IMG/VR virus record: IMGVR_UViG_3300009159_000072
Coordinates: 1 to 64,000 of that record
Direction: 5' to 3' (one strand)
Source: a virus
DNA length: 64,000 nt
Made by a program: the position numbers and the translations under genes. Positions 47,643-48,523 of the stretch are shown here, in pieces (within the stretch, counting starts at the first letter, position 1; each line of letters starts with the position of its first letter). Under the pieces are notes generated by a model. That model worked only from the letters and a program-made list of their open reading frames with translations, ran no database searches and was not told where the DNA came from.

Positions 47643-47828
47643 ATGAAAAAAGTAAAAGAGAAAGTGACCAGACTAAAGAACATTTACACTGGTGAAATCG
47701 TTATAACTAGTAACTTGTTTGAGAAAAGAGTTGATAGTACCATGACATTCATTCAGGTATATACCGAGACCAATCCACAAAGAATTTTCTTTGTTAACGG
47801 CGCGGCTTTTGTTCCGGCGACTAAATAA
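47643..47828 (+). CDS. Small hypothetical protein after regA
   Basis: 61 residues, starting six bases after the regA stop. A basic N-terminus (KKVKEKVTRLKN) and beta pattern (TGEIVITSNLF, FIQVYTETNPQRIFFVNG) suggest a small nucleic-acid-binding or SH3-like fold, but no family is recognised. Confidence 0.6.
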   Translation: MKKVKEKVTRLKNIYTGEIVITSNLFEKRVDSTMTFIQVYTETNPQRIFFVNGAAFVPATK

Positions 47829-47836
47829 TAGTATCT

Positions 47837-47966
47837 CAGGGATGGGAACATGGCGATAGTAACCATGTAAATAACTATCACTAATTTAAGAACCCACCTT
47901 AGGGCTGTTTGATGCTACGGTAAAAGGCGTCCGGGCAATTGCACTGTCACCCGTTAGTTGTCCCTG
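47837..47966 (+). ncRNA. Candidate structured RNA with pseudoknot ahead of hsp20
   Basis: The 206-base gap between the small gene and hsp20 has no ORF but much complementarity. CAGGGA (47837-47842) pairs with TCCCTG (47961-47966), closing a 130-nt domain. Inside, CATGG/CCATG (47849-47853 with 47863-47867) and GATAGT/ACTATC (47855-47860 with 47874-47879) cross each other as an H-type pseudoknot with loops of 1, 2 and 6 bases. CTACGG (47915-47920) pairs with CCGTTAG (47951-47957, one bulge). A terminator hairpin follows before hsp20. It could be a riboswitch-like attenuator or a separate small RNA. No known family was recognised, and tRNA and common riboswitch signatures are absent. Confidence 0.55.
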
Positions 47967-47985
47967 TATTAAGTAAGCAGGACCC

Positions 47986-48010
47986 AGCTACGCTTTCGAG
48001 GTAGCTTTTT
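47986..48010 (+). terminator. Terminator-like hairpin before hsp20
   Basis: AGCTAC (47986-47991) pairs with GTAGCT (48001-48006) across a nine-base loop, followed by a T-run. It ends the structured RNA and may set hsp20 read-through. Confidence 0.65.
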
Positions 48011-48034
48011 AACTTGCTTTTAAAGGAGAAATTT

Positions 48035-48523
48035 ATGACTAATCTAGGTCGTATTAATTTTGGACCATTGAGTCCAAGTACCGTTGGCTTTGAACGTTTT
48101 TTTGATGCGTTTGACCAACTCACCGTGGATAAAATTCCAACAAACACTTTTCCACCACATAACATTGTCAAAATTGATGACTATAATTACCAGATAGAAC
48201 TGGCAGTTGCAGGCTTCAAGATTAGTGATATTGATATTGAGGTTTTAAAGGGTGAATTGACAATTTCAGGTAAAAGAACTGAATTAAGTGATAAGTATAC
48301 TTATTTGCATCGTGGCATTGGTGCTCGATCATTTAAGAAGATTGTAAGACTCTCAGATTCTGTAAAAGTTGATGGAGCGACTTTGGAAGACGGAATTCTG
48401 ACGGTCAAGCTACATAACATCATTCCAGAAGAAAATCAGCCAAAACGCATTCCAATCGTTTCCAGTGGTAATACTCAAGTATTCAATTCTGAATCCGGCA
48501 ATAAAAAACTATTGCAAGAATAA
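48035..48523 (+). CDS. hsp20: Small heat-shock protein, Hsp20 family
   Basis: 162 residues. The alpha-crystallin domain spans ~45-140: NIVKIDDYNYQIELAVAGF, IEVLKGELTISGKR, RGIGARSFKKIVRL and DGILTVKL. It holds unfolding proteins in large oligomers. Hsp20 genes are characteristic of T4-like phages of aquatic bacteria and may aid capsid folding. ATG 48035 follows AAAGGAG; a longer in-frame TTG start would lie upstream of this site. Confidence 0.93.
   Translation: MTNLGRINFGPLSPSTVGFERFFDAFDQLTVDKIPTNTFPPHNIVKIDDYNYQIELAVAGFKISDIDIEVLKGELTISGKRTELSDKYTYLHRGIGARSFKKIVRLSDSVKVDGATLEDGILTVKLHNIIPEENQPKRIPIVSSGNTQVFNSESGNKKLLQE

What the first reader, a model, noticed from the sequence alone, without database searches (positions are those of the whole stretch)
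47837..48010. Unassigned structured RNA with an H-type pseudoknot upstream of hsp20
Seen: a 130-nt domain closed by a 6-bp helix, containing two crossing helices with loop lengths of 1, 2 and 6 (A/T-rich third loop), another bulged helix, and a terminator hairpin before hsp20. Known: this order (folded domain, terminator, gene) is how riboswitches and attenuators look; T4 uses a pseudoknot in gene 32 control. Inference: a cis-regulator of hsp20 or an independent small RNA.
Basis: partly seen in the sequence, partly recalled or inferred. Interest (0 to 1): 0.68.

Follow-up and report, generated by a model that had tools for sequence, protein, structure and literature searches.

The report
Modular RNA leader of phage hsp20
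The gap before the hsp20 chaperone gene of this T4-like water phage holds three separate folded RNA pieces: a pseudoknot at the 5' end that is almost always found with phage hsp20, a second RNA that occurs once per phage genome and does not need hsp20, and two hairpins like a bacterial RNA thermometer over the ribosome-binding site; the first two match no known RNA family.

Summary
(A) 47833-47879: a small hairpin, the conserved GGGAUGGGAAC and an H-type pseudoknot. It was found in about 55 aquatic phage loci, nearly all before hsp20. The second stem forms in 56/56 against about 7 in shuffles, with many compensatory changes. A sits just after a T4-type late promoter, whatever its distance to hsp20. 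(B) 47891-47982: a separate 92-nt RNA whose pseudoknot and 3' hairpin covary. There is exactly one copy in each of 22 phage records, often away from hsp20, so it probably acts on its own. (C) 47986-48028: the "terminator" is a conserved bulged-G hairpin, followed by CUUGCU..AGGAG, the U(U/C)GCU anti-SD motif of ROSE thermometers. Across 21 T4-like records such sites lie almost only at hsp20 (or the small ORF heading it), cultured cyanophages included. Rfam, manA and wcaG do not match. Best reading: a late hsp20 mRNA capped by a 5'-terminal pseudoknot, gated by a ROSE-like hairpin, and in this clade carrying an independent RNA. Anatomy is firm; function is inferred.

The parts
47823..47828 (+). 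TAAATA core of a T4-type late promoter (ACTAAATA, overlapping the stop of the 61-aa ORF)
   Evidence: Sequence. In leaders where TAAATA is recognised within 25 nt, it lies mostly 0-6 nt before the first structured element in A, A+B, B-only and bare leaders. Promoter activity inferred.
47833..47843 (+). A, P0: small 5' hairpin AUCU(CAG)GGAU, expected at about +1 of the late transcript
   Evidence: AUYY/GGAU hairpin of 4 bp or more in 52/56 A elements, shuffles mean 15.9, max 24
47839..47849 (+). A: conserved GGGAUGGGAAC
   Evidence: GAUGGGAAC was part of the search pattern, so its invariance is partly by construction; the GG before it is about 90-100% conserved
47848..47879 (+). A: H-type pseudoknot; S1 47848-47853/47863-47868, S2 47855-47860/47874-47879
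   Evidence: 97.5% and 96.3% of cells paired, covariation 0.364 vs 0.138 and 0.639 vs 0.189 in shuffles, slid versions 44% or less; R2 match 55 bits, E 7e-15 (the window was in the model)
47891..47982 (+). B: separate 92-nt structured RNA; P1 47893-47895/47902-47904, P2 47905-47908/47917-47920, P3 47932-47935/47950-47953 crossing P4 47946-47949/47959-47962, P5 47963-47967/47977-47981; P2b 47911-47915/47927-47931 uncertain
   Evidence: R1 match 110 bits, E 3e-28 (the window was in the model); P3, P4, P5 covary, 97.6-100% paired; one copy per genome in 22 records
47986..48006 (+).
   Evidence: 63/64 hsp20 leaders; 93.9% paired, 69 cells changed on both sides, covariation 0.650 vs 0.181
48013..48028 (+). 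C, hairpin II: CUUGCU (ROSE motif U(U/C)GCU) opposite the Shine-Dalgarno AGGAG 48024-48028
   Evidence: T(T/C)GCU..AGGAG in 64/76 hsp20 upstream regions; in the window 1 of 32 SD-ATG sites, hsp20
48035..48523 (+). hsp20 (small heat shock protein, 162 aa)
   Evidence: tblastn to phage Hsp20 proteins

Best explanation
47829-48034 is the modular 5' leader of a late hsp20 mRNA. The late promoter places the transcript start at the 5' edge of element A, so A (small hairpin, GGGAUGGGAAC, H-type pseudoknot) forms the very 5' end of the message. I think A is a 5'-terminal cap structure that keeps the late hsp20 transcript from decay and may be bound by a protein through GGGAUGGGA. At the 3' end, hairpin I and the CUUGCU/AGGAG hairpin form a short ROSE-type gate on the ribosome-binding site, holding Hsp20 synthesis down until the hairpin opens, by warmth as in bacterial ibpA or by another trigger. 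Between them sits B, an independent 92-nt RNA with a pseudoknot that uses the hsp20 transcript as a carrier in this clade. Shown: the anatomy, covariation, association of A and C with hsp20, single-copy B in other contexts, and position next to the promoter motif. Inferred: promoter use, stabilisation, SD gating, thermosensing, and independent action of B.
For: A: about 55 distinct copies, S2 in 56/56, covariation; the next gene is hsp20 or a 70-76-aa ORF (several shown to precede hsp20) in nearly all; one confident copy in each of 10 of 39 records; no credible copy among GTDB genome hits, none found in cultured phages by DNA similarity or in 10 cultured records by model. Where TAAATA is found, A lies mostly 0-4 nt after it, while its distance to the start codon is 100-119 nt alone or 189-274 nt with B inserted, so it is anchored to the 5' end, not to the SD. 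B. C; ROSE motif and two-hairpin layout as in Pseudomonas ibpA (PMC3669281).
Against: No transcript data. Nearest-neighbour folding of the window does not favour the exact ROSE pairing (probability 0.08 or less at 5-42 C) and shows little temperature change, although ROSE hairpins use non-canonical pairs that such models miss. Hairpin II arms are too conserved to test by covariation. Some A copies lack a recognisable TAAATA (12 of 56 with none in the 60 nt upstream). One A (L180) precedes a different gene and in L054 an endonuclease-like ORF intervenes. B in the window has a U-U mismatch in P4.
Confidence: 0.5

Rival explanations
1. A is a ligand-binding riboswitch aptamer controlling hsp20.
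For: Compact pseudoknot with a conserved unpaired segment and A-rich L3, in a leader.
Against: Tied to one gene rather than a metabolic set; B can sit between A and the SD without apparent loss of A; no overlap with an expression platform; no Rfam riboswitch match.
Confidence: 0.17
2. A is a protein-binding operator, like the T4 gene 32 pseudoknot or the IbpA-bound ibpA leader: Hsp20 or a phage RNA-binding protein binds A and represses translation.
For: One copy, one gene, structure conserved while stem sequences vary; E. coli IbpA is reported to repress its own translation through its 5'UTR (abstract of PMC10474464).
Against: Many hsp20 leaders of the same phage group lack A; distance from A to the SD varies by more than 100 nt and the interval is structured, unlike the unstructured gene 32 leader (own knowledge).
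Confidence: 0.2
3. The gap is a transcription attenuator: hairpin I is an intrinsic terminator.
For: In the window hairpin I is followed by UUUU.
Against: In many homologues it is followed by AAUUU or mixed sequence, with a conserved bulged G; no alternative antiterminator seen.
Confidence: 0.04
4. B is a self-cleaving ribozyme that frees the downstream mRNA rather than a trans-acting RNA.
For: Pseudoknotted core with long invariant unpaired stretches; sits between genes just after stop codons.
Against: No similarity to any ribozyme family in Rfam; no cleavage site identified.
Confidence: 0.2

Closest known systems
Short two-hairpin ROSE-like RNA thermometers (Pseudomonas ibpA, PMC3669281)
   Same: Upstream of a small heat shock gene; stable hairpin I; U(U/C)GCU opposite the Shine-Dalgarno in the 3' hairpin
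   Different: In a virus behind a late-promoter motif; bulged-G hairpin I; very short hairpin II; extra modules upstream; melting not shown; homologues score below the Rfam ROSE_3 threshold (25.0 and 22.9 bits against 43)
T4 gene 32 autoregulatory pseudoknot
   Same: H-type pseudoknot near the 5' end of a T4-type phage mRNA
   Different: Different gene; conserved GGGAUGGGAAC; variable structured distance to the SD; no evidence of gp32 binding
manA (RF01745) and wcaG (RF01761) RNAs of cyanophages (PMC2864571)
   Same: Structured leaders in T4-like phages; manA was reported before ibpA-type chaperone genes
   Different: Their models hit P-SSM2, P-TIM40, Mosig, syn9 and S-PM2 at other places, none at A or B
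T4 stable RNAs C and D (for B, own knowledge)
   Same: Small single-copy phage RNA without known function
   Different: No sequence relation tested; B is embedded in mRNA leaders or between genes

Membership tests
ROSE-like RNA thermometer | Lies in the 5'UTR of a small heat shock gene | tested here: met
ROSE-like RNA thermometer | U(U/C)GCU anti-SD motif before the SD | tested here: met
   CUUGCU 48013-48018; T(T/C)GCU in 64/76 leaders
ROSE-like RNA thermometer | Stable 5' hairpin I | tested here: met
   Covariation 0.650 vs 0.181
ROSE-like RNA thermometer | SD paired and released by warming | tested here: inconclusive
   Nearest-neighbour model does not favour the ROSE pairing and shows little temperature effect; experiment needed
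ROSE-like RNA thermometer | Score over the Rfam ROSE models | tested here: not met
   No hit in the window; homologues 25.0 and 22.9 bits vs 43
manA / wcaG RNA | Match to RF01745 / RF01761 | tested here: not met
Riboswitch | Binds a ligand and switches expression | not testable with these tools
   Only anatomy available
Intrinsic terminator / attenuator | GC-rich hairpin directly followed by a U-run, kept in relatives | tested here: not met
   U-run not kept
T4 gene 32 operator | Pseudoknot followed by an unstructured leader of gene 32 | tested here: not met
   Gene is hsp20; the interval holds structured elements

The most novel reading that the evidence does not exclude
Two new phage RNA families lie side by side: an hsp20-dedicated 5'-terminal pseudoknot and a single-copy, trans-acting (or self-cleaving) pseudoknotted RNA, combined with a ROSE-type thermometer carried by viruses across the T4-like aquatic phages.
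Probability: 0.4. Interest if true: 0.82.

Novelty: new variant of a known kind. Interest (0 to 1): 0.7.

Why it matters
hsp20 is a core gene of T4-like cyanophages, thought to help capsid maturation (PMC3037559), and I found no account of how it is controlled. A leader conserved from Pelagibacter, Methylophilales and cyanobacterial phages to uncultured freshwater phages suggests that phages gate a chaperone at the ribosome-binding site, and it offers a simple reporter test. The pseudoknot and the one-per-genome RNA B are clear targets: two covarying RNAs without a family or function.

Tried and rejected
Single-sequence folding (z = +0.44) and Rfam gave nothing for A or B. manA and wcaG were considered because of the reported ibpA association and rejected by model search. 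The closing helix was rejected. Bacterial origin of A: 48 GTDB pattern hits, 3 with S1 paired, judged not to be copies. Cultured phages show similarity only in part C. The B inner pseudoknot P2b (GAYG/CGUC) is only 89.5% paired with a recurrent mismatch and no two-sided change: left undecided. Thermodynamic thermosensing simulation was uninformative. A covariance model of part C was not built because loops of varying length misalign the SD. tRNA/tmRNA search found none.

Full report
Setting. The window is a virus record of 64,275 bases from a T4-like aquatic phage (judged from its ORFs: clamp loader, sliding clamp, DNA polymerase, terminase). The finding lies between a 61-aa ORF (47643-47828) and hsp20 (48035-48523). 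Nothing similar is in the cultured-phage collection at DNA level. A near-identical 162-kb contig (L001/L004) and 78 further loci came from the clamp loader protein.

The observation. The H-type pseudoknot is present as described, with L3 = 5. On its own it is about what chance allows and the nested fold is not significant. The gap in relatives showed at once that the region is built of modules: some relatives have only the 3' half (L009-L036), one has only the pseudoknot (L039), some have neither (L041, L049-L051), and nearly all keep the last two hairpins of the leader.

About 55 distinct copies pass the S1 pairing filter. S1 pairing was part of the selection; S2 was not. S2 forms perfectly with at least 5 bp in 56/56, against 7 on average in shuffles. 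On two alignments, 97.5% and 96.3% of cells pair, 5 and 10 pairs change on both sides, and slid versions fall to 44% or less. Upstream lies a small hairpin AUYY/GGAU (52/56; shuffle mean 15.9) and the conserved GGGAUGGGAAC, most of which was fixed by the search pattern. The next gene is Hsp20, or a 70-76-aa ORF that in several loci precedes hsp20, in nearly all cases. The model of A (R2) gives one confident copy in each of 10 of 39 phage records (L001 has one further weak match). Pattern hits in GTDB genomes include no credible copy.

Position. In leaders where TAAATA of a T4-type late promoter is found within 25 nt, A begins mostly 0-4 nt after it, while the distance to the start codon is 100-119 nt without B and 189-274 nt with B. 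In B-only and bare leaders the first structure also begins a few nt after TAAATA. So A marks the 5' end of the transcript rather than the ribosome-binding site. The expected start near 47833 rests on general knowledge of T4 late promoters.

In the others B mostly follows a stop codon and precedes unrelated genes, including desaturase-like genes, a transporter-like gene and small ORFs; in L277 and L287 B holds the hsp20 site without hsp20 next to it. Model R1 finds exactly one copy in each of 22 of 39 records; G010 (184 kb) has B but no Pfam HSP20 match, and G013 has both about 49 kb apart. P3, P4 and P5 covary; P3 crosses P4 as a pseudoknot. B is therefore best seen as an independent RNA.

Element C. 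Hairpin I has a bulged G and a covarying outer stem (63/64 leaders; covariation 0.650 vs 0.181). The following T(T/C)GCU..AGGAG is the motif that marks ROSE-like thermometers (PMC3669281). Over 21 T4-like records, 20 have such a site before an ATG; these sites lie at hsp20 or the small ORF that heads it in all but a few cases (extra or unrelated sites in G008 and G010; none in W05), and they include syn9, S-PM2, P-SSM2, S-CRM01, P-TIM40, HTVC008M, Mosig, Melnitz-3 and C48C1. In the window 1 of 32 SD-ATG sites has it. Temperature response was not shown; energy models neither favour the exact pairing nor predict melting. It is filed as 'works like ROSE', not as a member.

What is known. Rfam 15 has no family for A or B. 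manA and wcaG, known structured leaders of these phages, are elsewhere in the genomes tested. The literature searched notes hsp20 as a cyanophage core gene, possibly a capsid scaffold helper (PMC3037559), and riboswitches elsewhere in Melnitz (PMC9004378), but no account of this leader turned up. The literature held is partial, so novelty is provisional.

Noticed in passing
L035:11010-11260, L092, L103, L122, L169: A 70-76-aa ORF (phasin-like in appearance, not tested) lies between the leader and hsp20 in some phages; the ROSE-type site then precedes this ORF.
   Followed up: partly
L054:11246-12128: A and B are followed by a GIY-YIG-like ORF inserted before hairpin I and hsp20.
   Followed up: no
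L301, L306, L312, L326: B lies upstream of desaturase-like genes in four loci, directly or one gene away; L320 has B at a similar site without that gene.
   Followed up: partly
L047:5895-5960, L048:5520-5580: hsp20 leaders with a similar pseudoknot but without GGGAUGGGAAC.
   Followed up: no
L158, L190: A further sequence block between A and B (CUACUGCAAUUGCGCUCCCUACUUGCUAGGUGU..), possibly another module.
   Followed up: no
L103:2093-2200, L106:4194-4300: B copies with an extra hairpin-like insert between P2 and the GGCGUCCG stretch.
   Followed up: no
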